Source: Chloroflexota bacterium
GTDB lineage: Bacteria; Chloroflexota; Anaerolineae; B4-G1
Direction: 5' to 3'
Assembly: GCA_024232355.1 (NCBI GenBank)
Contig: JAAEPW010000957.1
Location: 1 to 18,697 of the forward strand
DNA: 18,697 nucleotides
Shown: positions 1,050 to 18,697 of the stretch, piece after piece
How the letters are laid out: each line of letters starts with the position of its first letter
How positions within the stretch are numbered: the stretch's first letter is position 1
Notes under the pieces: model-generated
What the model was told of the DNA's origin: nothing
What the model saw: the letters and a program-made list of their open reading frames with translations, nothing else
Databases searched by the model: none
Made by a program: the position numbers and the translations under genes

Positions 1050-3518
1050 ATGCAGGTAAAATCAATCCAGGTCAAGATCGCATTGTGGGCAGGGTTCAGT
1101 TTGTTGCTAGTTGCAGTGATCCTGATCGGCTATGCGGTGGTAACGCTGCGGAATCAAGCAATGGATGCTGCCCAGGCTCAAGCGATCGCCATGTCGCAAT
1201 CTGAGTCTGGGATCATCAAGGCCGAGATTGAGGTTGCACTCGACGCGGCGCGCACGCTGGCCCAGGCGCTGACGGCGATCAAGAGTCAGGAAATTGTTCT
1301 GACCCGCAATGACGTCAACGCCATGCTAAGACAGGTTCTGAACGAAAATCCGAAGTTCGTCGGCGTCTACACGCTTTGGGAGCCTAGTGCTTTTGACGGT
1401 TTGGACGCCGAGCACGTCGGCCTGGAGGGGCACGACGAGACCGGGCGCTTTATTCCCTATTGGAGCCGGGACAGCAGTGGCAACATTATGGTTGAACCCC
1501 TGGTGGATTATACACAACAAGGCCCTGGCGACTATTACCAGGTGCCCAAAAGGACCAAGCAGGAGGCCATCATTGATCCCTACATCTATCCCGTGCAGGG
1601 GGAGGATGTGTTGATCACCTCTCTGGTCGTGCCGGTGATTGCGAACGGCCAATTCTACGGCATCGCCGGGGTGGATCTGCGGCTCGAGTTCCTTCAAGAG
1701 TTGGCTGACACAGTGGACCTCTATGAAGGGACAGCTGATTTGCTCCTGATCAGCAACAATGGTTCGTTAGCGGGAGTGAGCGACCAACCGGATCTCGTCG
1801 GTGAGCACATGCAAGCTTACCACGAGGATTGGGAAGAAGACATCACTTACATCCAGGGATCTCAAGTACAATACGAAGAAGATCACGGCCACATCGCCGT
1901 GTTTGTGCCGATCCAGTTTGGCAGTACGGTGACACCCTGGTCGGTGAATCTCAATATTCCTATGGACAAAATCATGGCTGAGGCGGATGCTGTGATGTGG
2001 CAGATGATCGGGATTGGCGCAATTCTGACCGGTGGCGCACTGGTATTGTTGTGGTTCGCCTCTGGGCAAATTGCCCAACCAATCCGGCAAATCACTGGCA
2101 TCGCCCAAGGCATCGCGGAAGGAGATCTCGACCAGCAGGTGGATGTCACCAGCGAGGACGAAGTCGGGGAACTGGCCGATGCCTTCCGCCGGATGACCGC
2201 TTACTTGCAAGAGATGGCCCGCGCGGCAGGCCGCATAGCGGATGGCGACCTGACGGCCGACGTCAGAGCCAGGTCAGAGCAAGACATGCTGGGCAACAGT
2301 TTTGTCCAGATGATCGTCAATCTGCGCAACCTGATCGGGCAGGTGGCCAATAGTGCCAACGGTGTTGGTGTGGCTTCTGGTCAACTCTCTGCCGCCGCCG
2401 ACCAATCCGCTCAGGCCACCAACCAGATCGCCAGCACGATTCAGCAGGTCGCTGGCGGCACGGCGCAACAGACCGAGAGTGTGTCCAGCGCCACCGGTAT
2501 AGTCGAACAGTTGACGCGCGCCATCGATGGTGTAGCTCGGGGCGCGCAGGAGCAAGCTTCTTCGGTCGGCCAATCGGCCCAAATAACCGCCCACATCTCG
2601 ACCGTCGTCCAGAAAGTGACGGCCAATGCCCAAGCCAGCGCTCAAGGCGCTGCCGAGACCGCCCAAACCGCCCGCGATGGCGCAGAGACGGTCGCAAAGA
2701 CGGTCAAAGGTATGGAAAGCATCAAGGCCAGCACCGACATGGTGGCGCAAAGGGTCCAAGAGATGGGCCAGCGTTCCGAGCAGATCGGCGATATTGTGGC
2801 GACGATTGACGACATTGCCTCCCAGACGAACCTGCTGGCCCTCAACGCCGCTATCGAAGCCGCTCGCGCCGGGGAACACGGCAAGGGTTTCGCAGTGGTG
2901 GCCGACGAGGTGCGCAAACTGGCCGAGAGTTCTACCGAGGCCACCAAAGAGATCGCTGGGCTGATCAAGGATGTGCAGCGGACCATCACAGAAGCCGTGC
3001 AGGCGATGGACGAAGGCGCAACCCAAGTTGAAGCGGGTATGGCGCAGGCCGACGATGCTGGTCGGGCACTGGATGTGATCTTGGCAGCCGCCGAGTTGGT
3101 CAACCGGCAAGTGGGCGAGATCGCCACCGCCGCTCGGGAGATGGATGCGTCGGCCAACGAACTGGTAGGCGCGATGGACAGTGTCTCGGCAGTGGTGGAA
3201 GAGAACACCGCCTCCACCGAAGAGATGTCTGCCGGAGCGGGCGAGGCGTCACAGGCCATCGAGAATATTGCGGCTATCTCGGAAGAGAACAGTGCGGCAT
3301 CCGAAGAAATGAGTGCGACGGTCGAAGAAATGACCGCGCAGGTGGAAGAGGTCACCGCCTCAGCCCAGTCGTTGTCTGGGATGGCTGTCGAGTTGCAAAC
3401 GTTGGTGGCACAGTTTAGACTGCCCGATGGTGGGTCCACAGCATCACCAGCGGCGGCCCAAGGTGGGAACGGATGGGAGCATAAAAAAGCGCAGACACCT
3501 AGACGATATCGAGCGTAA
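1050..3518 (+). CDS. Methyl-accepting chemotaxis protein with dCACHE-like sensor
   Basis: This 822-residue membrane chemoreceptor has TM1 at about 11-33 and a periplasmic double-CACHE-like sensor at about 35-310. The sensor contains [10 protein letters not shown], a WSR motif, DYYQVPK, DPYIYP and YGIAGVDL, all typical of dCACHE_1 domains. TM2 is at about 316-338, followed by HAMP at about 340-390 and a second HAMP-like segment at 391-430. A long coiled-coil signalling domain ends the protein. The CheA/CheW-binding hairpin tip lies at about 586-625 and includes [18 protein letters not shown] and [14 protein letters not shown]. Glu/Gln-rich stretches flank it as candidate methylation or deamidation sites. 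The protein ends in RRYRA, with no NWETF-like CheR/CheB tether. AAAGGAG at 1036-1042 lies 7 nt before the ATG. It is probably the input receptor for the CheA encoded downstream. The ligand is unknown; dCACHE domains often bind amino acids or other small metabolites. Confidence 0.95.
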
Positions 3519-3686
3519 AAAGTGAAATGTGAATCATATCACAACAAGTGTGTACAATCAAGAAATGTGTGTTCACAAGACAAGCTGAACGGAGACAGAA
3601 AATAGTTTTTACGAATAGATCAGGCAAGTGGATGTGGCAAATGGGCAATAACCTATTCATACCATCACTGAAAAAGGAGATAACCA

Positions 3687-4076
3687 ATGGCATACTTTGA
3701 CGAATCGTACTTGGCTATTCGCTGGGATGAAGGAACTCGATGTGTGGTAATGAGATGGAAAAAGGCCGTTCACGGCCAAGAGTTTAGAATTGGCCTGGAA
3801 AAGGGGCTGGAATTGGTCAAAGAGAAGACGGCGAGCCGGTGGTTGGCTGATGTGCGAAATATCGACGCGCTTTCGGAGGATGACCAAGAGTGGTCGAATG
3901 GGAATTGGTTCCCGCGTGTCTTGAGTGCGGGCATCAAGCGGAATGCGCTGATCGTTCCGACGAGCACACTGCGTCAAATAGCCATCGAGGCGATCATGAG
4001 CAAGGTCGAAGGGATAGATTTGGAAACGGCTTATTTTGATAATGTCGAGCAAGCCAAAAGGTGGCTTGATTCCTGA
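3687..4076 (+). CDS. Small SpoIIAA/STAS-like protein
   Basis: This 129-residue soluble protein has an alternating strand/helix pattern similar to SpoIIAA-like (STAS/SEC14-type) proteins. An N-terminal strand pair reads YLAIRWDEGTRCVVMRW (8-24). A helix at 31-47 leads to the core strand RWLADVRNID (51-60), then EDDQEW (64-69), NWFPR (73-77), the strand NALIVPTST (86-94) and a C-terminal YFDNVEQAKRWL helix. The canonical anti-anti-sigma phospho-Ser motif (Asp-x-Ser) is absent, so a phospho-switch role is not supported. AAGGAG at 3674-3679 lies 7 nt before the ATG. It sits between the chemoreceptor and cheA, 168 nt after the first and 99 nt before the second. That placement suggests an accessory or scaffolding role, which is inference. 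The family assignment is by pattern and moderately secure. Confidence 0.7.
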   Translation: MAYFDESYLAIRWDEGTRCVVMRWKKAVHGQEFRIGLEKGLELVKEKTASRWLADVRNIDALSEDDQEWSNGNWFPRVLSAGIKRNALIVPTSTLRQIAIEAIMSKVEGIDLETAYFDNVEQAKRWLDS

Positions 4077-4111
4077 GACCTTGTCGGGTCGAGGAAATTG
4101 TTTCGCACTGG

Positions 4112-4126
4112 CTCCTTTTGAAGGAG
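4112..4126 (+). other. Hairpin CTCCTT-TTG-AAGGAG before cheA
   Basis: CTCCTT (4112-4117) and AAGGAG (4121-4126) are perfect inverted repeats around a 3-nt loop. The 3' arm is a full Shine-Dalgarno sequence. It lies 22 nt before the ATG at 4149 and about 50 nt before the chosen cheA start at 4176, so it is probably not the working cheA ribosome binding site. It could be a small RNA stem in the leader. The loop is very tight, and chance is possible. Confidence 0.3.
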
Positions 4127-4175
4127 ATCAGATCACGCGGCACGGTGTATGCAAGGTTGGAGAGTGGGGAGCACT

Positions 4176-6284
4176 ATGGAAAATATATTGACATTTGAAC
4201 TCCACGCGGAAGAAACAGAAGATTTTCTTCAGGATGTCAACGAGAACCTGGACGCTTTGGAAGCGGGTATCTTGCGCATGGAGCAATCGGCGGACCTCGA
4301 CACGCTCAATGCGACTTTTCGCGCTGCCCACACGGTCAAGGCGGTAGCTGCTACCGTGGGCCACCACCAAATGACCGAGATCACCCATACCCTAGAGACC
4401 CTCTTTGACACGATGCGTGAAGGCGAATTAAGCCCCACTCAAGCGGTGACCGACCGACTGCTCGCCACAGTCGACGTGCTCAAGGCTCTGCGAGATGAAG
4501 TGGTCACCAGGCAGCCTAGTGGCGTGGATGCTGCTGCTTTTCTGTCTGGACTGCGCGCACTGATAAATGGCGATGCTGGCGGACAGAAATCAGCCCCTGT
4601 TGTTTTGGACATTCAAGAAACCCAACACCTTGACGCGGTACATTTTGTGCTCACTGATGAACAGGCGGCCCAAGCGCAAAGCTGCCGTCAACAGGGACAG
4701 GCCATACGCAAAGTCATAGCCGTTGCCCGCACTGATGGTTTCGCGCAAGGCGCTCGCCTCCTCCAAGCAGCGATGGAATTGCACGAAATGGGCCAAGTTA
4801 TCGCCCAGCAACCGTCGCAGTCTCACTTGAACGAGGGGCAACACGACGGTTATTTGTGGCTCGTACTTGCCACCCATGTCGATACGGACATGATCGATGA
4901 GACGTTGGGCTATATCTCGGATCTGGCCGCATATCGCGTGTGCCCCTACGAGTTGGATGAATTGGGCCAGTCTTCTGCTGAACTGCTGGCCGAACTTTTG
5001 GCGGATACGTCGACGGACGCTGCCTCTGCCGCCTCACAATCGGCTGTGGAAACGGATGTGTCGGGCGCTGATCAGACCGTTCGCATCAGTGTCGAGCGCC
5101 TCGATACGCTCATGAACCTGGTGGGCGAACTGGTCACCGACCGGACTCGCTTGGTGCAGATCCAAGATCTGTTACAGTCCAAGTACGGCAAGAACGGCTC
5201 GGTCGGTGCGTTGAGCGATATGGTCTCTCACTTTGATCGCGTGGTAGACAGTTTGCAGGAAGAGGTGATGGAAGCCCGGATGCTGCCTATTGCACATCTC
5301 TTTCAAAAGTTCCCACGTCTCGTTCGCGACGTGGCCCGCATCTCTAATAAACAGGTCAACCTGATTATTGATGGTGAGGCCACCGAACTCGATCGCTCTG
5401 TCATTGAGGTCATTGGCGATCCTCTGATTCACCTGCTGCGCAACGCGGTGGACCATGGCCTCGAATCGCCCCAGGACCGGATCGCGGCGGGCAAGCCGCC
5501 TACGGGTACCATCTGGCTCGCCGCGGCCCACGAGGAAGGCCACATTGTCATCACGGTCAAAGACGACGGACGAGGCATTGACCCGGAGCGGATACGCCGT
5601 TCGGCTGTCAATCGTGGTTTGATGTCTGAGGAGCAAGTTGCCCAACTCGACGACGATGCGGCCATCAACTATATTTTTCAACCCAACCTCTCCACTGCCG
5701 AAAAGGTCACCGACGTCTCGGGGCGGGGGGTGGGGCTGGATGTGGTGCGCACCAACGTCAAGCAACTCAGCGGCTCGGTGGTGGTAGAGAGCGAGATCGG
5801 GCAGGGCACGACCTTTCGCGTCACTTTGCCCCTCACGCTGGCTATTGTGCAAGCGATGATGATCGGCCTGGGAGATGACGTATACGCGATTCCACTGACG
5901 AGCATCGTCGAGTCGTTGTACCTGGCGGACGTCCAGGCCAGCACTGTGCAAGGCAAGCCCGTGATCACGTGGCGCAACCAGGTACTGCCGATCGTGCGAT
6001 TGCGTCAATTTTTTACTCACACCCGTATGGCCCTGGCTCCCCCCAACGGCACCAAACAGGCCGTGGTGACGGTGGCATGGGGCAAACTAAAGGCTGGCTT
6101 GGTGGTAGATCAACTGCTCGGCAAACAAGAGATTGTGATAAAGTCGCTCGGTTCTTTTATCGGCAACGTGCCAGGTCTGTCGGGTTGTACCATTCTGGGC
6201 GATGGGCGGATCGCCCTCATTGTAGATGTTCCGGGCCTTATTGGTGCTTGCTTGCAAGCTCAAAGGCAGGAGGGTGCAAAGTGA
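4176..6284 (+). CDS. cheA: Chemotaxis histidine kinase CheA
   Basis: This 702-residue cytoplasmic kinase autophosphorylates on the P1 His and passes phosphate to CheY. P1/Hpt spans about 5-110 with His52 in FRAAHTVKA. A CheY-binding P2-like domain lies at about 150-262, including the stretch from GARLLQ to VIAQQPS. P3 dimerisation starts near 302 (RISVERLDTLMNLVGELV). P4 ATPase carries the N box LLRNAVDHGLE (420-430), G1 DDGRGID (463-469), an F-box-like IFQPNLSTAEKVTDVSGRG and G2 GRGVGLDVV (516-524). P5, a CheW-like domain, runs from about 555 to the end. I chose ATG 4176 because GGGGAG (4166-4171) lies just ahead, whereas ATG 4149 has no usable site. In P1 the Gly that usually follows the conserved Lys is Ala56. 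The stop codon overlaps the GTG start of cheC, which indicates translational coupling. Confidence 0.96.
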   Translation: MENILTFELHAEETEDFLQDVNENLDALEAGILRMEQSADLDTLNATFRAAHTVKAVAATVGHHQMTEITHTLETLFDTMREGELSPTQAVTDRLLATVDVLKALRDEVVTRQPSGVDAAAFLSGLRALINGDAGGQKSAPVVLDIQETQHLDAVHFVLTDEQAAQAQSCRQQGQAIRKVIAVARTDGFAQGARLLQAAMELHEMGQVIAQQPSQSHLNEGQHDGYLWLVLATHVDTDMIDETLGYISDLAAYRVCPYELDELGQSSAELLAELLADTSTDAASAASQSAVETDVSGADQTVRISVERLDTLMNLVGELVTDRTRLVQIQDLLQSKYGKNGSVGALSDMVSHFDRVVDSLQEEVMEARMLPIAHLFQKFPRLVRDVARISNKQVNLIIDGEATELDRSVIEVIGDPLIHLLRNAVDHGLESPQDRIAAGKPPTGTIWLAAAHEEGHIVITVKDDGRGIDPERIRRSAVNRGLMSEEQVAQLDDDAAINYIFQPNLSTAEKVTDVSGRGVGLDVVRTNVKQLSGSVVVESEIGQGTTFRVTLPLTLAIVQAMMIGLGDDVYAIPLTSIVESLYLADVQASTVQGKPVITWRNQVLPIVRLRQFFTHTRMALAPPNGTKQAVVTVAWGKLKAGLVVDQLLGKQEIVIKSLGSFIGNVPGLSGCTILGDGRIALIVDVPGLIGACLQAQRQEGAK

Positions 6285-6886
6285 ACGATCAACAAGCAAT
6301 TTGGCACAATCTAGTCAGTGGTCCGCACTCGGACCAGACGTTGAACCAGGTGATGTGGCAAGTGGTGAGCGGCTTGTCCGAGATGACGGGACAGTCGATC
6401 AACAACGAAATGCCCCAGGTAAAAAAAATTCCCATCGCTCAGGTGCCCATGCGCGTTGGTCACCCGGAAGCGGAAATGGTGGGGGTTTACCTGTCTATCG
6501 GAGGGGGGCTGCGTGGGCAGGCTATCCTGATCTTGCCTTTGAGCAGTGCCCTGAACATGGTAGATTTGTTGATGGGCGAGTCGCCAGGCACGAGCACTGA
6601 ACTGGGGGATATGGAGCGGTCGGCGCTGGCCGAGATCGGCAATATGACGCTCTCGTATTTTCTCAATGCCACGGCCAGCCTCGCCGATGCTACGGAAATG
6701 TTGCAACCATCCCCCCCGGCTGTGATGGTGGATATGTTGGGTGCGATTCTGGACGTGATCGTCACATCGGTGGGGGCTGTGCGAGACGATATGCTGATCG
6801 TCGAAACGGGTTTCAAGGATTCCGGCGGAAACGTACACGGATATTTTTGGGTGATGCCCGATCCGGCTATTCAGGGTTTGGGGTAG
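6281..6886 (+). CDS. cheC: CheC-type CheY-P phosphatase with one intact active-site half
   Basis: This protein of about 201 residues belongs to the CheC/CheX/FliY phosphatase family, which dephosphorylates CheY-P and binds CheD. The second half holds the signature SALAEIGN (114-121), giving the catalytic Ser-x3-Glu-x2-Asn pattern with Glu118 and Asn121. It is followed by YFLNATASLA, a Pro-rich turn and VDMLGAILDV, as in the C-terminal half of classical CheC. The first half (about 17-99) keeps the fold-like pattern LRGQAILILPLSSALNMVDLLMG. At the expected first active site it reads LNQVMWQVVSGLSEMTG, with no Glu-x2-Asn. GTG 6281 is chosen because AGGAGGG (6268-6274) lies 6 nt upstream and the GTG overlaps the cheA stop (GTGA). 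The frame stays open further upstream inside cheA, but that extension is a shadow. Confidence 0.9.
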   Translation: MNDQQAIWHNLVSGPHSDQTLNQVMWQVVSGLSEMTGQSINNEMPQVKKIPIAQVPMRVGHPEAEMVGVYLSIGGGLRGQAILILPLSSALNMVDLLMGESPGTSTELGDMERSALAEIGNMTLSYFLNATASLADATEMLQPSPPAVMVDMLGAILDVIVTSVGAVRDDMLIVETGFKDSGGNVHGYFWVMPDPAIQGLG

Positions 6887-6926
6887 GAGTTTGGAAGAGA
6901 ATGACAAGTAACGATAGGAGCAGACG

Positions 6927-7505
6927 ATGACCGAAAATATGCGTTCTGTCGGCATCGGGGAACTGATCACAAGTGATGCGCCCAACGACGTGTTGGTGGC
7001 CTATGGACTTGGCTCGTGTGTGGCGATCTGTTTGTATGATCCGGCGGTAAAAGTGGGTGGGATGTTGCACGCGCTGCTGCCAGCCAATCCCAAAAACAAT
7101 AGTAGTGGGGGCAATCCTCTCAAGTTCGTGGACCAGGGTCTGCCGCTGTTGCTCAAATCTCTGTCAAAGTTGGGGGGCATACGCACCCGATTGATCGCGC
7201 AACTATGCGGCGGTGCTCAGGCACTATCGGCCCTCGGTTTTGAAAATGACGATTTGGCAAGTATCGGAAAACGTAATATACTGGCTGCTCAAACTGCCCT
7301 AAAGGCGGCAGGTATTCCAGTACGAGCACAAGCCATTGGTGGTCGCATCGGTCGCACGGTGAGGCTCTACATTGTGGATGGGGAGGTCACGGTCAGAAGC
7401 TTGGGGCAAGACGTACAAGTTTTTACCCTTGTCCCAGATACCAAACCTCAAGCACAAAACATGGCAACGCAGCATAGATCAGGAGGCGCATTATGGCCAA
7501 AATAA
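6927..7505 (+). CDS. cheD: Chemoreceptor glutamine deamidase CheD
   Basis: This 192-residue protein matches CheD, which deamidates receptor glutamines and in CheC systems shuttles between receptors and CheC. The core GIGELITS, YGLGSCVAICLYDP and GGMLHALLP places the catalytic Cys at 31 and His at 48. The 17-residue spacing equals Cys27-His44 of Thermotoga maritima CheD. The position of Thr21 in that enzyme is Ala25 here. Later family features are AQLCGGAQAL (91-100), KRNILAAQ and IGGRIGRTVRLYI. After the core there is a C-terminal tail of about 26 residues beyond the Thermotoga length, whose codons double as the cheY ribosome binding site. AGGAG at 6916-6920 lies 6 nt before the ATG. The gene overlaps cheY by 13 nt. 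Activity may be reduced or depend on other residues because of the Thr-to-Ala change. Confidence 0.93.
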   Translation: MTENMRSVGIGELITSDAPNDVLVAYGLGSCVAICLYDPAVKVGGMLHALLPANPKNNSSGGNPLKFVDQGLPLLLKSLSKLGGIRTRLIAQLCGGAQALSALGFENDDLASIGKRNILAAQTALKAAGIPVRAQAIGGRIGRTVRLYIVDGEVTVRSLGQDVQVFTLVPDTKPQAQNMATQHRSGGALWPK

Positions 7506-7849
7506 TGGTTGTGGATGACAGTTTGTTTATGCGAAATAATCTCTCAAAATTGCTTGGTCGAAATGGATACGAGATCATCGTCGCGGAGAATGGCGAGCAG
7601 GCAGTGGAGAATTATCGTCAGGCTCGCCCGGATGCGGTGATTATGGATATCACCATGCCCAAAATGGACGGCCTGACGGCCCTGAGCGAGATCCGCGCGT
7701 TCGATTCCAAGGCCAAAGTCATCATGCTCACGGCAATGGATCAAGAGTCGGCGGCGACGCAGGCCATCCGGCGCGGAGCCAAGGACTTTTTGGGCAAACC
7801 GGCTCCACCCAAACGGATACTCGCGGCGCTGCAACATGTGCTGAGATAG
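7493..7849 (+). CDS. cheY: Response regulator CheY (single-domain receiver)
   Basis: This 118-residue stand-alone receiver is phosphorylated by CheA and dephosphorylated by CheC. All key residues are present: the acidic pair Asp8-Asp9 in KIMVVDDS, phospho-acceptor Asp52 in DAVIMDITMP, Thr80 in VIMLTA, and Lys102 in FLGKPAPP. There is no output domain. The DITMPKMDGL form is typical of CheY proteins of CheC/CheD systems. AGGAGG (7481-7486) lies inside the 3' end of cheD, 6 nt before the ATG. It is the last gene of the module and is followed by the intrinsic terminator at 7904. The output target (flagellar motor, pili or other) is not encoded nearby. Confidence 0.95.
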   Translation: MAKIMVVDDSLFMRNNLSKLLGRNGYEIIVAENGEQAVENYRQARPDAVIMDITMPKMDGLTALSEIRAFDSKAKVIMLTAMDQESAATQAIRRGAKDFLGKPAPPKRILAALQHVLR

Positions 7850-7903
7850 AACAAGTTCTGTTTGTTGGCTATTTGTCAGGTGCTGTGAGTGTTTTCATAT
7901 GTC

Positions 7904-7940
7904 AAATCTCCACTTTTCTCAAGGTGGAGATTTTTGTTTG
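7904..7940 (+). terminator. Rho-independent terminator after cheY
   Basis: AAATCTCCAC (7904-7913) pairs with GTGGAGATTT (7924-7933). The stem extends inward through TTT/AAG to a TCTC tetraloop, and TTTTTGTTT follows. It lies about 55 nt after the cheY stop and is the clear 3' end of the chemosensory operon. Confidence 0.9.
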
Positions 7941-7986
7941 ATGGTCTAATTGACTGACAAATCTTTTTGGGCCGTGTTCACCCCAA

Positions 7987-8068
7987 GGGATGAAAATGCA
8001 GCCGAGCTTTCCATAGCGCGTTGAGTTTGCCAAGTGCGCGACTTGTTGTGACGGAAACTTGGCTGCAT
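7987..8068. repeat. Paired-hairpin repeat, copy 1
   Basis: This intergenic element shares with 18577-18644 a GGGAT start, ATG(C/T)AGCCG, GCTTTCCATAGCGCG, a GGAAAC core on the far side, and a GCCCC..TTTTT tail. Outer arms ATGCAGCC (7996-8003) and GGCTGCAT (8061-8068) pair perfectly. Inside are a left hairpin, CGAGCT-TTCCAT-AGCGCG with one mismatch, and a right hairpin, GCCAAGT/ACTTGGC, whose loop is enlarged to about 21 nt compared with copy 2. It lies between the cheY terminator and the pirin pseudogene. I infer a REP- or MITE-like family; function is unknown. Confidence 0.75.
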
Positions 8069-8113
8069 TGCCCCGATTTTTATCAAAGTCACAAAAAGAA
8101 TAAAGAGGTCAAA

Positions 8114-8716
8114 ATGAACCAAAAGGATAGCAGTTCAAAGTTGAGAAAGATGCAGCGCATCATCGAGCCATAGGTTGTCTCTGATGGCGCGAGCGTGCGG
8201 TTAAGGCAAAGTATCGCCTCGCAAACGTTGAATTACCTAGACCAGTCCGGTCGGACAACTCGAACGATCATGTCGCGGGTTGTCCGATGCACCCGCACCG
8301 GGACATCGAGACGGTGACCTATATGCTCGCTGCTGTGATCCTTCACCAAGACAGCATTGGGAATCCGGCACTATCCAGGCGGGCGATGTGCAGTGGATGA
8401 CGGCGGGACCCGGTGACCGACATTGTGGTCAATCCGATGTATTTGGACGTCTCGATCTCGTCCAATGGTGTGTTCGTCCAGCCGGTTGAACGAGGGCACG
8501 TGGCCTTTGACTATGTTTTTGAGGGGGAAGGCGAATTTGGCGTTGTGGATTAGGAGGATGGGGAGCGAGTTGCACACCTCAAACTGGCCGTTTTTGATGA
8601 CAGTGATCACATTGAGGTACGCGCAACGAATTGCCCGGCCCGGGTCTTTTGTGATGAACACACGGGAAGGAAATCAGCAGGCGCTTCAAGATCTGCGGGA
8701 AGGGACGTTTGTGTAA
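8114..8716 (+). pseudogene. Decayed pirin family gene
   Basis: Fragments of a pirin (cupin-type metalloprotein) are readable in order but in all three frames. The start MNQKDSSSKLRKMQRIIEP is followed by an in-frame TAG at 8171, then VVSDGASVRLRQSIASQTLNYLD. After a frame change comes CPMHPHRDIETVTYML (about 8281-8330), which keeps the His-x-His metal ligands. After another comes SGTIQAGDVQWMTAGPG. The next fragment is PMYLDVSISS through YVFEGEGEFGVVD, then TAG at 8551 and EDGERVAHLKLAVFDD. The last is GSFVMNTREGNQQALQDL to the stop at 8716. The segment with the second His/Glu ligand pair (usually HSEM) is deleted, as is part of the C-terminal region. AAAGAGG at 8102-8108 would have been the ribosome binding site. 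The intact ancestor would have been near 280-300 residues. Confidence 0.92.
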
Positions 8717-8783
8717 GCACACGGATTTTCAGGATTCGTGGATTCAGGCATTCGGCAAGCTACAACTTTTTCTCCAATCCAAG

Positions 8784-8824
8784 ACAGCAGCCTCAATCGT
8801 CAAGGGGGCTGCTGTTTTCTGTTT
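8784..8824 (+). terminator. Rho-independent terminator after the pirin pseudogene
   Basis: ACAGCAGCC (8784-8792) pairs with GGCTGCTGT (8807-8815), followed by TTTCTGTTT. The 14-nt loop can pair slightly further. It survives although the gene it served is dead, and it insulates the downstream promoter at 8842. Confidence 0.85.
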
Positions 8825-8841
8825 GACGTTCGTGTTCCAAC

Positions 8842-8870
8842 TTGCGCAGACAGACAGAGCAGGATAGAAT
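8842..8870 (+). promoter_or_regulatory. Sigma-70-like promoter for the radical SAM gene
   Basis: TTGCGC (8842-8847) and TAGAAT (8865-8870) are separated by exactly 17 bp. Transcription would start near 8876-8878, only 2-4 nt before the ATG at 8880. That leaves no room for a ribosome binding site, so the mRNA would be leaderless or nearly so. Confidence 0.55.
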
Positions 8871-8879
8871 TGTAGATGT

Positions 8880-11387
8880 ATGAACTGGCTAAACCGCCGC
8901 AGACGGGCCCAAGCATTTCTCCCTTGCGATAATCCCACGTTCAAGAACCCTGATTTCGAGACCGCTTCCTACCGGGTTCTGATCGTGAGGCTATCTCCTT
9001 TTCGGGATGTGGACCGCTCCCTGCCTCATCTATTTCTCTTTCACGAGGTGCGGCAAGCGTTGCCGGATGCGTTCGTCGATATGGCGTTTTTTCCCTCGGC
9101 CAGCGAAAGAAAATTGCTAGAGCGGGCAGATGCCCCCGCCCTCATCGGCACCCAGTCGCTGCGCCTGGCCGAGGATTTTGACCTGGTGCTGATCTCGAAC
9201 GCCTACACCCTGGAACTGATCAACCTGCCTTATCTGCTGATTCATTCCAATATACCGCTCTTTGCCAGCCAACGGCGACTTCAGAAAGCCAAAGCCGAAT
9301 GGCCGATCATCATTCTCGGTGGGTCGAACGCGATGGCGGCGCAGTCTATCGTCCGCGCGGATGGCGATAGTTTAGTGGACGGTATCTTTTTTGGGGAAGG
9401 TGAAGGGTGGGTAGGTAGCCTGGTTTCTCTTTTGTCGCAGAATCGGCAAAAGGACAAGCGACAGGTGATGGAACAGATCACTGAAAAGACGCCCGGCCTT
9501 TGGGTCGCGGGATCACTGTGTCCCACCCAAAAGGCTGTTCTTCACACGCCGGAAGCGACGTTCTTGCCGACCGAGTACCCCATCCTCAACAGCCCCGAGG
9601 CGCACACGGCCAGCCTTCAGATCAATTACGGCTGCCCGGCGTTCTGCTCTTTTTGTTTCGAGGGCTACGACCGCAAGCCGTATCGCGAACTTGCCCTCCC
9701 CGACGTTCTCGCAGCCGCTCGCCAGATCAAGGGCGCGCAGGGAGTCGAGGAACTGAACCTGTACAGCTTTAACTTTAACACGCACCAAGACGTCCTACCG
9801 ATGGTCCTGGAACTGCACAAGCTTTTTGACCGGGTGAGTTTCAAGAGCCAGCGGGTAGACATTCTGCGGCACACGCCGGGCCTGCTGGCGGCGGAGGTCG
9901 AGGCGGACAAGCGCGAGTTTACACTGGGCATCGAGGGGATCAGCGATCGCCTGCGAGCGTGGATGCACAAGAGCCTGCCCACGGACGACGTCACCGCTTT
10001 GCTGGACCGGATATTCGGGCTCAAAGTGCGGCGGGTCAAGTTGTTTTACATCCTGACCGGTCACGAGACCGACGAGGACATTGACGAGTTTCGCCAATTC
10101 TTGCAATGGCTCAAGGAAGCCCGCCGTCGCTCTCAGAACCGGCGTTTGCGGGTGGTCTTTAGCTTTGGCTTGCTGATTCGGATGCCGTTTACGCCGCTGC
10201 GGTACGACCGGCTCTTTCTCGACGAGCAGGAATGGAAACCATTGATCGGACGGATCAAATCAGCTTGCGAGACGAACGGGTTCGAGTTTCGGCTGGCCTT
10301 TGATTGGGCGGACTATTGCGTCAGCCAGGTGCTGGCGATGGGTGGGCATTGGCTGGTGGAGCCGATCGTGATGTTGGCTCGGGAAGGATATTGTTTCGAT
10401 ACCGCGATGCCGCCACAATATTGGGACAAACTCAAAGGGTGGATGGAAGAAGCGGGACATTGGAACGATGCTTTTCTGGGTGAAAAAGAACCCGACTATC
10501 CCTTTGCGCTCGAGTTCGTCGAGTCGAATATCTCTGGCGAGTTTTTGTACTGCCAGTACCAAGAGGCCCAGTCTGGTGTGGATAGCGGCTACTGTCTGGG
10601 GAATGACAAGCAGCCCGGTCGCTGTTTGGGATGTGAAGCCTGTGTGGATCAGGAACAGAGGCGGTCAATCACACATCATCAAATCCGCCAGCCGGAGCGC
10701 AGTGCGTTCCAAGTGCAACTGCGAGAGGTGATGGCTCGCAAGCGACGGCTGCAACCGGTCTATTTCCGGCTGCGGTTGGAGCCGTGGTTGGCCGGGCTTT
10801 TGCCCGAATATCTCAACGCTTTTGTTTTTCAAGAGTTTCTTGTACAATATCCCAAGTTGGTGGATAATCTGCTGTCTGTGCGAGAGAGTTTGTTCACGCT
10901 TCGCCCCAGCAAGCATCGATTCCCCTCTGTGAGCGGCGAGACGATTTTTGCCCTGAAAGCTTGGAATGTCCGGGCACTAGAAACCGGGTTTTTCTACAAG
11001 CAAAGCGACGAAATCCCAGTTTCTGGATTCGAGATCATAGATTTGGCCGATGGTTTCACGCCCGGCGTATTTAACAAGCTGCACCTGGACGTACATTTGC
11101 CCGCTCATCTTTTTCCCGAACCACGCATCCGGCTGGAAGAGTACCTGCGCGGCGCATACGTGCGCTATTCCCTGCGGCGGGATGGCGCTCGCTATCGTTT
11201 TGAGATACCTTCCAAAGCGCTCAAAAAAAAGGTTGTTTTCGGTGGCTTTTTCGAGACTCGCGAGAACGAATTTTTTGCCAGCCTGGACGTGGGATTCAAG
11301 TTCGACTTTATGGCGTTCTTGCAGACATTTGGCAAGAAAGGACTGCATCACCGCGCGCGGGCGTGCGTCTCAGAGATCGAGTGGTAG
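8880..11387 (+). CDS. B12-binding-type radical SAM protein with C-terminal Cys cluster
   Basis: This 835-residue protein has a cobalamin-binding-like Rossmann domain at about 30-185 (YRVLIVRLSPF, DFDLVLISNAYTLE, PIIILGGSNA, GEGEG). A radical SAM core follows, with the 4Fe-4S motif CPAFCSFC (Cys252, 256, 259) after SLQINYGC. The core continues through LNLYSFNFNTH, RVDILRHTPG and FTLGIEGISDRLR to about 480. A second Cys cluster follows in YCLGNDKQPGRCLGCEACVD (Cys572, 582, 585, 588), which may bind an auxiliary cluster or zinc. The C-terminal 250 residues are of unknown fold. Such enzymes often catalyse methylation or rearrangement; the substrate here is unknown. ATG 8880 has no Shine-Dalgarno sequence but lies just after a promoter. 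The zinc-ribbon gene follows 21 nt downstream, probably in the same transcript. Confidence 0.88.
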   Translation: MNWLNRRRRAQAFLPCDNPTFKNPDFETASYRVLIVRLSPFRDVDRSLPHLFLFHEVRQALPDAFVDMAFFPSASERKLLERADAPALIGTQSLRLAEDFDLVLISNAYTLELINLPYLLIHSNIPLFASQRRLQKAKAEWPIIILGGSNAMAAQSIVRADGDSLVDGIFFGEGEGWVGSLVSLLSQNRQKDKRQVMEQITEKTPGLWVAGSLCPTQKAVLHTPEATFLPTEYPILNSPEAHTASLQINYGCPAFCSFCFEGYDRKPYRELALPDVLAAARQIKGAQGVEELNLYSFNFNTHQDVLPMVLELHKLFDRVSFKSQRVDILRHTPGLLAAEVEADKREFTLGIEGISDRLRAWMHKSLPTDDVTALLDRIFGLKVRRVKLFYILTGHETDEDIDEFRQFLQWLKEARRRSQNRRLRVVFSFGLLIRMPFTPLRYDRLFLDEQEWKPLIGRIKSACETNGFEFRLAFDWADYCVSQVLAMGGHWLVEPIVMLAREGYCFDTAMPPQYWDKLKGWMEEAGHWNDAFLGEKEPDYPFALEFVESNISGEFLYCQYQEAQSGVDSGYCLGNDKQPGRCLGCEACVDQEQRRSITHHQIRQPERSAFQVQLREVMARKRRLQPVYFRLRLEPWLAGLLPEYLNAFVFQEFLVQYPKLVDNLLSVRESLFTLRPSKHRFPSVSGETIFALKAWNVRALETGFFYKQSDEIPVSGFEIIDLADGFTPGVFNKLHLDVHLPAHLFPEPRIRLEEYLRGAYVRYSLRRDGARYRFEIPSKALKKKVVFGGFFETRENEFFASLDVGFKFDFMAFLQTFGKKGLHHRARACVSEIEW

Positions 11388-16951: not shown

Positions 16952-18541
16952 CTATCCCATCATCCCAAAAAGGATGGACAGGTTGTATACCACGTGTACG
17001 GCTGACCCGGCGAGCACGGCAAAGGGATAACGCTTGGCGCCAAAACGGAGGGTGAGCAAACAGACGATGGACGTAAAAAAGAAGTGGGCGACGAGGGGAA
17101 TCCAGAGCTTGCCGACGTTAAAGACCGCCGCCGACAGCATCGATTCCGACACGATGCCCACCGAGACGAACAATAGCAGCTTTTCTCCCACCAGGAATCC
17201 GAGCGCGGAGAGAAAAGACACCACGATGATGTCCTTGGCTGTTTTGACATCCCGGTTCTCGATCAGCACCGTGATGCCCGCCGACTTTGTGATTTCCTCA
17301 ATGATGACGGACATGATCAGCAATGCCACAAGGGCTATGCGGATGGGCAAGTTGAGCGCCACCGCCAGGGTCACCAACTGAATCATGTAGACGATGGGGA
17401 TTAGAAACAGGCTCAGCAGTGTGACGGATAGGTGAATGTGCTTGCGATTCAAGGCGAGATAGATGGCGTCTGCCACCTTTCGGTAGAGGGGGCGGAATTT
17501 CATCAGGTATTCTTCGTTCAGGACGCGGCTGCCCACGTACATGGTCAGGATAAAGACGAGATACATGGACGCCGTCGAGGTCAGATATTCCTTGAGGCCA
17601 AAAGGCTGACCCCGGTACATTTTGATCGCCAGCGTGAGGGGCGATATATAGCTCAAGTCGTTGATGCCAGAGAACATCGCCGGAAAGACCAGGTACGACA
17701 TGATGACCGTCGTCGCCAGCATCGAGATGAACGTCGTATCCTTGAACGTGCGGTAGACCAGGGGCACTATCAGGTATATCGAAAAGATGAACAGGATGAC
17801 GGGGATAAAGATGACTATTGCCAGCAGCAAATTGCCCTTCATTATCAATGTCAGAACGACCATAAATGCCAGCGCGAATATCATATAGGGCAGCATTTTC
17901 CCGACAATGATCTGGAACGGGGTCACCGGGGCCGACAACAGGACGGTGATGCGGCGGTCTTTTTTCTCGTTCATAAAGCCGCTGGTGAAAAAGACGCTGA
18001 CGAAAAAGATCGGCAGGACATAGATCGACACGGTGACGACCTGCGCAAAAGGCAAGGGAGGGCTCATCAGCGACGGGATCATGATCTCGTCATCCGCTGA
18101 CAGGTCGATAGGAAAATAGTTGACGCCGACGCGCAGGGGAAAGCCCGTATCCATCTCGTGCTCCGCCTCGACCCGGGCCAGTTCCTGAACTTCTAGGTAC
18201 AGTTTCAGTGCCGCGACCGCGTACAGGGATTTTTCTTCGTCTCTGTGAACGACCTGATCTCCGTCAATGTAGGCATTTATTGCTCCAGTTTCGAGCATCG
18301 AGTTGGCGGAAGAGCGATCCACGTTCACCGTGTCGAATCGGCTGTCGTCAATGTGCGGGCTGCCGGGGTTGACGCCTATTCTGTACAACCCTCGGCCCCG
18401 GACGGCCCCCTGCCGGAATGCCAGGTAGGTGATCAGGAACGAGCCGAGCAAGATGAGGGTGACGACCGGTCGTGATTTTCCTGTAAAGCGAGACCGCAAT
18501 CTGGTGATCTCGCGTTTTGCAACGGTCAAGATATTTTTCAT
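16952..18541 (-). CDS. ABC-2 permease fused to PrsW-like membrane protease
   Basis: This 529-residue fusion begins with a NatB-like ABC-2 permease (about 1-345), which has TM1 near 26-42, an extracytoplasmic domain to about 165 and the ABC-2 motif NEKKDRRITVLLSAPVTP near 191-208. A C-terminal multi-helix domain (about 367-529) carries PrsW-type metalloprotease motifs: IIEEITK (Glu415, Glu416, Lys419), GFLVGEK (Glu453), VAHFFFTS (His486) and HVVYN (His516, Asn520). PrsW proteins are membrane metalloproteases; B. subtilis PrsW cleaves an anti-sigma factor. I chose the ATG at 18541 because AAGGAG on the minus strand lies 10 nt upstream. The alternative GTG at 18562 would put that site inside the gene. 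It is followed 14 nt later by the second permease. The protease substrate is unknown. Confidence 0.87.
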   Translation of the reverse strand: MKNILTVAKREITRLRSRFTGKSRPVVTLILLGSFLITYLAFRQGAVRGRGLYRIGVNPGSPHIDDSRFDTVNVDRSSANSMLETGAINAYIDGDQVVHRDEEKSLYAVAALKLYLEVQELARVEAEHEMDTGFPLRVGVNYFPIDLSADDEIMIPSLMSPPLPFAQVVTVSIYVLPIFFVSVFFTSGFMNEKKDRRITVLLSAPVTPFQIIVGKMLPYMIFALAFMVVLTLIMKGNLLLAIVIFIPVILFIFSIYLIVPLVYRTFKDTTFISMLATTVIMSYLVFPAMFSGINDLSYISPLTLAIKMYRGQPFGLKEYLTSTASMYLVFILTMYVGSRVLNEEYLMKFRPLYRKVADAIYLALNRKHIHLSVTLLSLFLIPIVYMIQLVTLAVALNLPIRIALVALLIMSVIIEEITKSAGITVLIENRDVKTAKDIIVVSFLSALGFLVGEKLLLFVSVGIVSESMLSAAVFNVGKLWIPLVAHFFFTSIVCLLTLRFGAKRYPFAVLAGSAVHVVYNLSILFGMMG

Positions 18542-18576
18542 TCTCAATTTGCTCCTTGGCACTGGTTCAGTTGAAT

Positions 18577-18644
18577 GGGATTACGATGTAGCCGCGCTTT
18601 CCATAGCGCGTAAGGCCCTGCGAGGTATGGAAACCTCGGCTACA
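18577..18644. repeat. Paired-hairpin repeat, copy 2 (best preserved)
   Basis: Outer arms TGTAGC (18587-18592) and GCTACA (18639-18644) enclose two perfect hairpins. The first is CGCGCT-TTCCAT-AGCGCG (18593-18610) and the second CGAGGT-ATGGAA-ACCTCG (18621-18638), joined by a 10-nt linker. The two 6-nt loops are exact reverse complements, so they could kiss. Each half, read on its own strand, is TGTAGCCG, then variable stem bases, then TTTCCATA, then the compensating bases. AGCCCCTTTTT follows on the + strand, as GCCCC..TTTTT does after copy 1. It lies about 45 nt upstream of the minus-strand permease operon. The remaining bases to 18697 hold no feature I can support. Confidence 0.8.
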
Positions 18645-18697
18645 AGCCCCTTTTTGAGCCACAATTGGCTGACTATCCAGAAATCCCACCCAACTGA

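What the first reader, a model, noticed from the sequence alone, without database searches (positions are those of the whole stretch)
18577..18644. Twin-hairpin repeat with complementary loops and compensating stem changes
The sequence shows two perfect 6-bp hairpins whose 6-nt loops (TTCCAT and ATGGAA) are exact reverse complements, enclosed by TGTAGC/GCTACA. The two halves are inverted copies of one module, TGTAGCCG-stem-TTTCCATA-stem. Their stem bases differ, CGCGCT in one and CGAGGT in the other, yet each stays perfectly paired. Compensating change means the pairing is under selection, either as DNA cruciform or hairpin (transposase target) or as RNA with a kissing-loop. A second copy lies at 7987-8068.
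Basis: partly seen in the sequence, partly recalled or inferred. Interest (0 to 1): 0.72.

Follow-up and report, generated by a model that had tools for sequence, protein, structure and literature searches.

The report
REP doublet inside a mobile element
The twin hairpin is a pair of short mobile palindromes of a long-known bacterial kind (REP sequences), here in a relative of the Chloroflexota and sitting inside a second, independent miniature transposon, so it is mostly ordinary, with an unusual nesting and an apparent flip of the inner unit.

Summary
18588-18643 is a REP doublet (REPIN/BIME unit): two inverted copies of GTAG-CCGNGN-TTTCCATA-NCNCG. Of 60 relatives of a Thermoflexus-named MAG, 36 match (up to 2 mismatches), seven of them 23-136 times. 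Relatives carry REP-associated tyrosine transposases (NCBIfam NF047646, 142 bits, cut-off 80), with the same REP beside 5 of 8 such loci. Complementary loops need no kissing-loop explanation: inverted copies of one sequence always have them. Stem differences mark REP subtypes; pairing is conserved, but selection is not proven.

Relative G041 holds copies of this shell, four of six testable ones with 7-8 bp flanking repeats; two relatives lack it beside the orthologous gene. A second, unrelated shell in G041 also carries such doublets, with exact 9-bp duplications in 24 of 31 copies. Against G041 the window's 56-nt core is inverted inside a collinear shell (2 mismatches inverted, 12 direct). 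Copy 2 is a decayed relic with an unpaired stem change. New variant of a known kind.

The parts
18558..18582 (.). Left terminal inverted repeat of the outer MITE-like shell (GGCACTGGTTCAGTTGAATGGGATT)
   Evidence: same sequence at ends of G041 copies
18588..18610 (+). REP 1, subtype CGCGC: GTAG foot plus 6-bp hairpin
   Evidence: same subtype in G041, G045, G002
18611..18620 (.). 10-nt spacer between the two REPs
   Evidence: 8 of 10 positions match the inverted, 6 of 10 the direct G041 C107 spacer (sequences, counted by eye)
18621..18643 (-). REP 2, subtype CGAGG, inverted relative to REP 1, GTAG outward
18644..18681 (.). Inner shell sequence of the MITE-like element
   Evidence: Aligned to G041 C107, C13, C157
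18682..18697 (.). Right terminal inverted repeat, cut off by the end of the contig (16 nt seen)
   Evidence: Pairs with the left repeat in the minus-strand fold; the same end is complete in G041 C107
7998..8020 (+). Relic REP of a decayed second copy of the same composite element (foot GCAG, one A.G stem mismatch)
8048..8068 (-). Degenerate second REP of that relic; approximate limits, read by eye
   Evidence: not found by the REP scan
16952..18541 (-). ABC-2 family permease gene; its Shine-Dalgarno-like AAGGAG (18552-18557) abuts the element; orthologs in G041 and G029 have no element there

Best explanation
The twin hairpin is a REPIN (a doublet of GTAG-type REP sequences) of a Chloroflexota lineage, lying as the core of a non-autonomous MITE-like transposon. 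Shown: sequence anatomy; multicopy family in relatives; the same REP beside RAYT genes in relatives; outer terminal repeats with flanking duplications in G041; absence beside the orthologous gene in two relatives; inverted core relative to G041. Inferred: a RAYT (HUH/Y1 transposase) recognises each GTAG-hairpin as single-stranded DNA and moves REP doublets, while a separate DDE-type transposase moves the outer shell with the doublet as passenger. The doublet therefore has two possible routes of spread. In the window the shell lies directly upstream of the ribosome-binding site of an ABC permease gene. The complementary loops are a by-product of inverted duplication, not an RNA kissing contact.
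For: GTAG foot and hairpin; 0-136 pattern matches per genome in 60 relatives against 0-7 for the reversed-pattern control. Stem letters free in my filter: 62 REPs in held loci, innermost pair A-T 33, G-C 15, C-G 14; second pair C-G 53, A-T 8, T-G 1; 60 of 62 fully paired. RAYT: NF047646 141.9 and 142.3 bits, cut-off 80; PDB 4er8 TnpArep E 1e-25; HFH/HVH and YIHYNP/YVHYNP readable. RAYT relatives at E below 1e-39 in 6 of 60 genomes, same REP beside 5 of 8 such loci; these genomes hold more REPs (Mann-Whitney p 8e-5, relatedness not corrected). Outer repeats: 11 ends in G041; flank repeats 8/8, 7/8, 7/8 and 7/7 in four of six copies, best of lengths 7-9. Second shell: 24 of 31 exact 9-bp duplications, 25 of 31 with both REPs. 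G041 and G029 have 24 nt and no element between the orthologous permease gene and its divergent neighbour. Core inversion: 2 versus 12 mismatches of 56.
Against: No genome is held for the window, so neither a RAYT nor a shell transposase was shown in the same organism. Three REP-rich genomes (G055 43, G007 30, G002 23 matches) have no RAYT relative below 1e-39; draft gaps or loss are possible. In G041 the RAYT between REPs is broken and one of G045's has a stop inside. Three of the 8 RAYT loci (G023, G037, G045:C111) have no such REP nearby. No complete autonomous element with the window's own terminal repeat was found; only transposase-like pieces in G072 with no family above cut-off. One G041 copy of the shell, C113, has no REP; C113 and C157 have no flank repeat. 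The window's right end is missing, so its own target duplication is untestable, and its far neighbour gene is not seen.
Confidence: 0.88

Rival explanations
1. A structured RNA (leader or regulatory RNA) in which the two loops kiss, upstream of the permease gene.
For: Both hairpins are perfect; the minus strand, which would be the permease leader, folds 5.2 sd below shuffles with both hairpins formed, shell stem included.
Against: No Rfam match. The same doublets occur in other places, in another shell and beside RAYT genes. In the doublets compared the loop is the same module on both sides, so there is no loop covariation to point to. Plus-strand folding prefers pairing the two REPs to each other. 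Orthologous permease genes in two relatives lack it.
Confidence: 0.05
2. An ordinary MITE whose internal palindrome merely looks like a REP; no RAYT is involved.
For: Outer repeats and duplications explain spread by themselves; three REP-rich genomes lack the RAYT subfamily.
Against: The same REPs occur as doublets without a recognisable shell (C138, C33, C68, judged by eye) and lie beside RAYT genes; the core can be inverted while the shell is not; in G029 the second shell carries a different GTAG palindrome pair.
Confidence: 0.1
3. About the core inversion only: it is not a movement of the doublet but replication template switching between the 8-bp inverted arms TGTAGCCG/CGGCTACA.
For: The arms are identical and about 40 nt apart; such inversions at short inverted repeats are known in general (recalled). 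It needs no transposase.
Against: Nothing here decides between this and RAYT action; only one inversion event is inferred.
Confidence: 0.6

Closest known systems
GTAG-type REP / BIME / REPIN elements (PMC2817692, PMC3116915, PMC3733652; passages, and part 1 of 4 of the Results of the last)
   Same: GTAG foot, 6-bp stem, high copy number, inverted (head-head) doublets, RAYT genes beside the REP; GTAG repeats are already reported from Chloroflexi
   Different: Loop TTCCAT/TTCCAA is not in the part of the REP table that I saw; the family figure of PMC3733652 is not held, so a match there is not excluded. Lies inside a MITE-like shell
REP dimers inside longer palindromes in A. variabilis, T. roseum and H. 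neapolitanus (PMC3733652, passage)
   Same: REP dimers or elements regularly embedded in a longer inverted repeat
   Different: That passage mentions no target duplications and no orientation change; here two unrelated shells, 9-bp and 7-8 bp duplications, and an inverted core
Bacterial MITEs such as Nezha, NEMIS, RUP (as named in PMC3733652)
   Same: Short non-coding element with terminal inverted repeats and target duplications
   Different: The core is a second, independent class of mobile repeat

Membership tests
GTAG REP / REPIN | Palindrome of about 20-40 nt with GTAG at one foot | tested here: met
GTAG REP / REPIN | Many copies per genome, mostly intergenic | tested here: inconclusive
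   Copy number met in relatives; both window copies lie between ORFs of 100 aa or more; copy number in the window's own genome not testable; intergenic share in relatives not counted
GTAG REP / REPIN | Doublets in inverted orientation, GTAG outward | tested here: met
GTAG REP / REPIN | Cognate RAYT with the same REP beside it | tested here: met
   In relatives: 5 of 8 loci; not in the window
GTAG REP / REPIN | RAYT cleaves and rejoins the REP | not testable with these tools
   Needs biochemistry
RAYT (genes in relatives) | HUH motif, Y---NP tyrosine motif, REP-associated family model | tested here: met
   HFH/HVH and YIHYNP/YVHYNP readable; NF047646 above cut-off for the two proteins scanned; motif definition from PMC6006769 passage
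MITE (outer shell) | Terminal inverted repeats at both ends, no coding capacity | tested here: met
   in G041; right end of the window copy cut off
MITE (outer shell) | Target-site duplication | tested here: inconclusive
   Four of six G041 copies; not testable in the window copy
MITE (outer shell) | Autonomous partner element with the same terminal repeat | tested here: inconclusive
   Window-type shell: only pieces in G072. Second shell: G014 element with similar ends and a 452-aa frame, weak DDE_Tnp_1_assoc match below cut-off
Structured RNA with kissing loops | Match to a known RNA family | tested here: not met
   No Rfam match at gathering thresholds

The most novel reading that the evidence does not exclude
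REP doublets in these Chloroflexota form invertible, exchangeable cassettes inside MITE shells: a RAYT moves or flips the doublet in place while a DDE transposase disperses the whole, so two unrelated transposition chemistries act on one element of about 150 bp, and different REP families are loaded into the same shell in different genomes.
Probability: 0.2. Interest if true: 0.65.

Novelty: new variant of a known kind. Interest (0 to 1): 0.42.

Why it matters
How REP doublets spread was called a central but unresolved issue (PMC3116915, passage; I did not review later work). A REP doublet carried as passenger in an element with terminal repeats and clear target duplications gives another, testable route, and a shell with an inverted core is a natural record of an event on the doublet alone. 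It also shows that complementary stem differences between repeat copies need not be compensating mutations.

Tried and rejected
Rfam search of the window: no match at gathering thresholds. Plasmid collection with the element: no match. Exact pattern in viral contigs: no match. Kissing-loop RNA: rejected, see rivals. Reading the window-G041 stem differences as compensating mutations: rejected in favour of one inversion. Autonomous partner of the window-type shell: 11 of 400 phylum genomes match the terminal repeat with up to 3 mismatches; only G041 (11 ends) and G072 (3 ends) have more than one. Of the G072 transposase-like pieces, the first has only zinc-ribbon matches below cut-off and the second none; the second, sought in 8 genomes, found only itself. 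Single matches in G047 and G061 show no second end and no REP. Promoter/terminator scan of 18400-18697: nothing. Wider spread of the REP: with GTAG foot and up to 1 mismatch, 4 of 400 phylum genomes match, only G041 more than once, so the family seems confined to near relatives.

Rows dropped: the 62-REP count required GTAGCC and the loop TTTCCAWA, which leaves out window copy 2 with its unpaired change and REPs with other loops; 2 of the 62 have an unpaired A-C. The 31 second-shell elements are those with both ends and both flanks in loci that I had fetched, out of 168 terminal-repeat matches in G041. Of seven G041 places with the window-type end, C13 has only one end and was left out of the flank test.

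Full report
What is there. The plus strand reads TGTAGC, a hairpin with stem CGCGCT and loop TTCCAT, a 10-nt spacer, a hairpin with stem CGAGGT and loop ATGGAA, and GCTACA. The geometry is beyond chance: no neighbouring hairpin pair with complementary loops in 200 shuffles. But two inverted copies of one module must have complementary loops, so that part carries no extra information.

Family. No genome is held for the window. The radical SAM protein at 8880-11387 led to a Thermoflexus-named MAG (L002, 55% identity) and a short contig labelled Planctomycetota (L001, 71%). In the Thermoflexus-named genome (G002) the window element finds eight places at E up to 1, best 9e-7; in the genome of L001 none. 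The pattern AGCCGNGNTTTCCATANCNCG with up to 2 mismatches hits 36 of 60 relatives, with 136, 48, 43, 31, 30, 25 and 23 matches in the seven richest; many of the others are at the level of the reversed-pattern control, which gives 0-7 per genome. With the GTAG foot and up to 1 mismatch, 4 of 400 genomes drawn across the phylum match, three of them once. So this is a lineage-limited multicopy repeat.

Kind. The foot is GTAG, the stem 6 bp, and copies stand alone or as inverted doublets with GTAG outward. These are the marks of GTAG REPs and REPINs (PMC3733652, part 1 of 4 of the Results and passages; PMC3116915 and PMC2817692, passages). PMC3733652 already reports GTAG repeats in Chloroflexi. 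Seven REP-rich genomes were searched for Y1 transposases: six have them, 17 genes in all. Five of the 17 have this REP within 600 nt, and four of those five are, by their shared motifs, one RAYT subfamily. Two members pass the NCBIfam REP-associated tyrosine transposase model, and one was compared with solved structures and matches TnpArep, PDB 4er8. With that protein as query, 23 of 60 genomes match at E up to 1e-5, but only six below 1e-39, at eight loci; five of the eight have this REP alongside, on one side or both. The subfamily is common in public data: 393 relatives at E up to 1e-10; of the 120 listed, one is named Anaerolineae and one Chloroflexota. Against the link: G055, G007 and G002 are REP-rich without it, and G023, G037 and G045:C111 have the gene without this REP nearby.

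Stem pairing. In held loci, 62 REPs chosen by GTAGCC and loop only: 60 are fully paired, with stem types GCGA, GCGC, GAGG, GCGG and ACGG; two have an A-C mismatch, one of them also a T-G pair. The innermost and second pairs, which the fetching pattern left free, are standard pairs in 62 of 62. Copies are related by descent, so these are not 62 independent tests, and window copy 2, which has an unpaired change, falls outside the filter. I read this as pairing kept in active subtypes and lost in relics.

The shell. Around the doublet lies GGCACTGGTTCAGTTGAATGGGATT...AATCCCACCCAACTGA, and the contig ends there. G041 has the shell with two ends at C107, C46, C79 and C113 and with one good end at C13, C157 and C102; C113 has no REP. 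Flanking repeats, best of lengths 7-9, are 8 of 8 at C102, 7 of 8 at C107 and C46, 7 of 7 at C79, and absent at C113 and C157. Orthologs of the adjacent permease gene in G041 (68% protein identity) and G029 (70%) stand 24 nt from the start codon of a divergent gene, in G041 an ABC ATPase, with no element between. The window's own neighbour lies beyond the contig end, so the site is matched by the permease side only. I take the window to carry an insertion next to the permease's Shine-Dalgarno-like site. The element is 93.5% identical to G041 C107 once the core is flipped (86.3% as it stands), while the gene is 70.4% identical in DNA, which hints at recent spread between lineages.

A second shell. 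In G041 another element, CAGCAATTCCCGTT...AACGGGAATTGCTG, mostly 121 bp, has 168 terminal-repeat matches; 6 of 60 relatives have any. Of 31 copies read, 24 have exact 9-bp duplications and 25 hold both REPs. One sits inside a REP of the window-type element at C46, with duplication GCGAGGTAT. In G029 the same shell carries a different palindrome pair in the five copies read, GTAG-footed except for one mutated foot in L137. In the copies from G047 and G059 with two ends, this REP family was not found; other GTAG palindromes were not scanned for there. A fuller element with similar ends and a 452-aa frame is in G014; its only domain match is DDE_Tnp_1_assoc at 23.2 bits, below the cut-off of 32.3.

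The flip. Shell sequences of window and G041 align in one direction: on the right 1 mismatch in 32 nt for C107 and C157 and 4 for C13, on the left 6 in 28, against 24 in 28 for the crossed control. The 56-nt core GTAG...CTAC differs at 12 positions directly and at 2 when inverted, for C107, C13 and C157 alike. Window copy 2 has the CGCGC REP on the same side as window copy 1, and the diverged G041 copy C79 a CGCGC-like half there, so the young G041 copies probably descend from one flipped progenitor. This is one event, by inference. RAYT action or template switching could have made it.

Function. I think the doublet is a RAYT substrate, selfish or domesticated, that also travels as passenger of the shell. 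Effects on the permease gene are untested; no promoter or terminator consensus was found in 18400-18697.

Novelty. The REP family is a new member of a known kind. The nesting has a precedent in PMC3733652 (REPs in palindromes of three species). Searches of the open library listed no paper that, by title, abstract start or the passages I read, describes REP doublets in MITEs with target duplications. The MITE review PMC10969869 was only searched for terms: 'REP' appears there in the reference list alone, 'REPIN' and 'RAYT' not at all. Subscription papers are not held.

Noticed in passing
L078 (G041 C46) and L183 (G041 C95): Among 31 second-shell MITEs read, one lies in a REP hairpin (duplication GCGAGGTAT) and a second apparently does (duplication AGCCGCGAT is REP sequence; its flanks were not checked), so REPs may be targets for that element.
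   Followed up: partly
L072 (G045:C111) and L074 (G002:C186): Other Y1 genes have GTAG palindromes of their own nearby (GTAGGGCGGGATTCCCATCCCGCC; GTAGCGCGGGCGTCCCGCCCGCG): possible further REP-RAYT pairs.
   Followed up: no
L111, L117, L122, L127, L137 (G029): The second shell carries a different GTAG palindrome pair (GTAGTAGCGACTTT... / GTAGTGGCGACTTTAGTCGC); several G029 contigs begin in this element, which suggests assembly breaks.
   Followed up: partly
L104 (G041:C113, 74340-74621): A copy of the window-type shell without REPs, with other sequence as core.
   Followed up: no
window 1050-7849: Chemotaxis cluster on the plus strand: MCP, CheA, a CheX-like match below cut-off, CheD, response regulator.
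   Followed up: no
window 7850-8880: A gap of about 1 kb without an ORF of 100 aa, which contains the decayed copy 2; the rest is unexplained.
   Followed up: no
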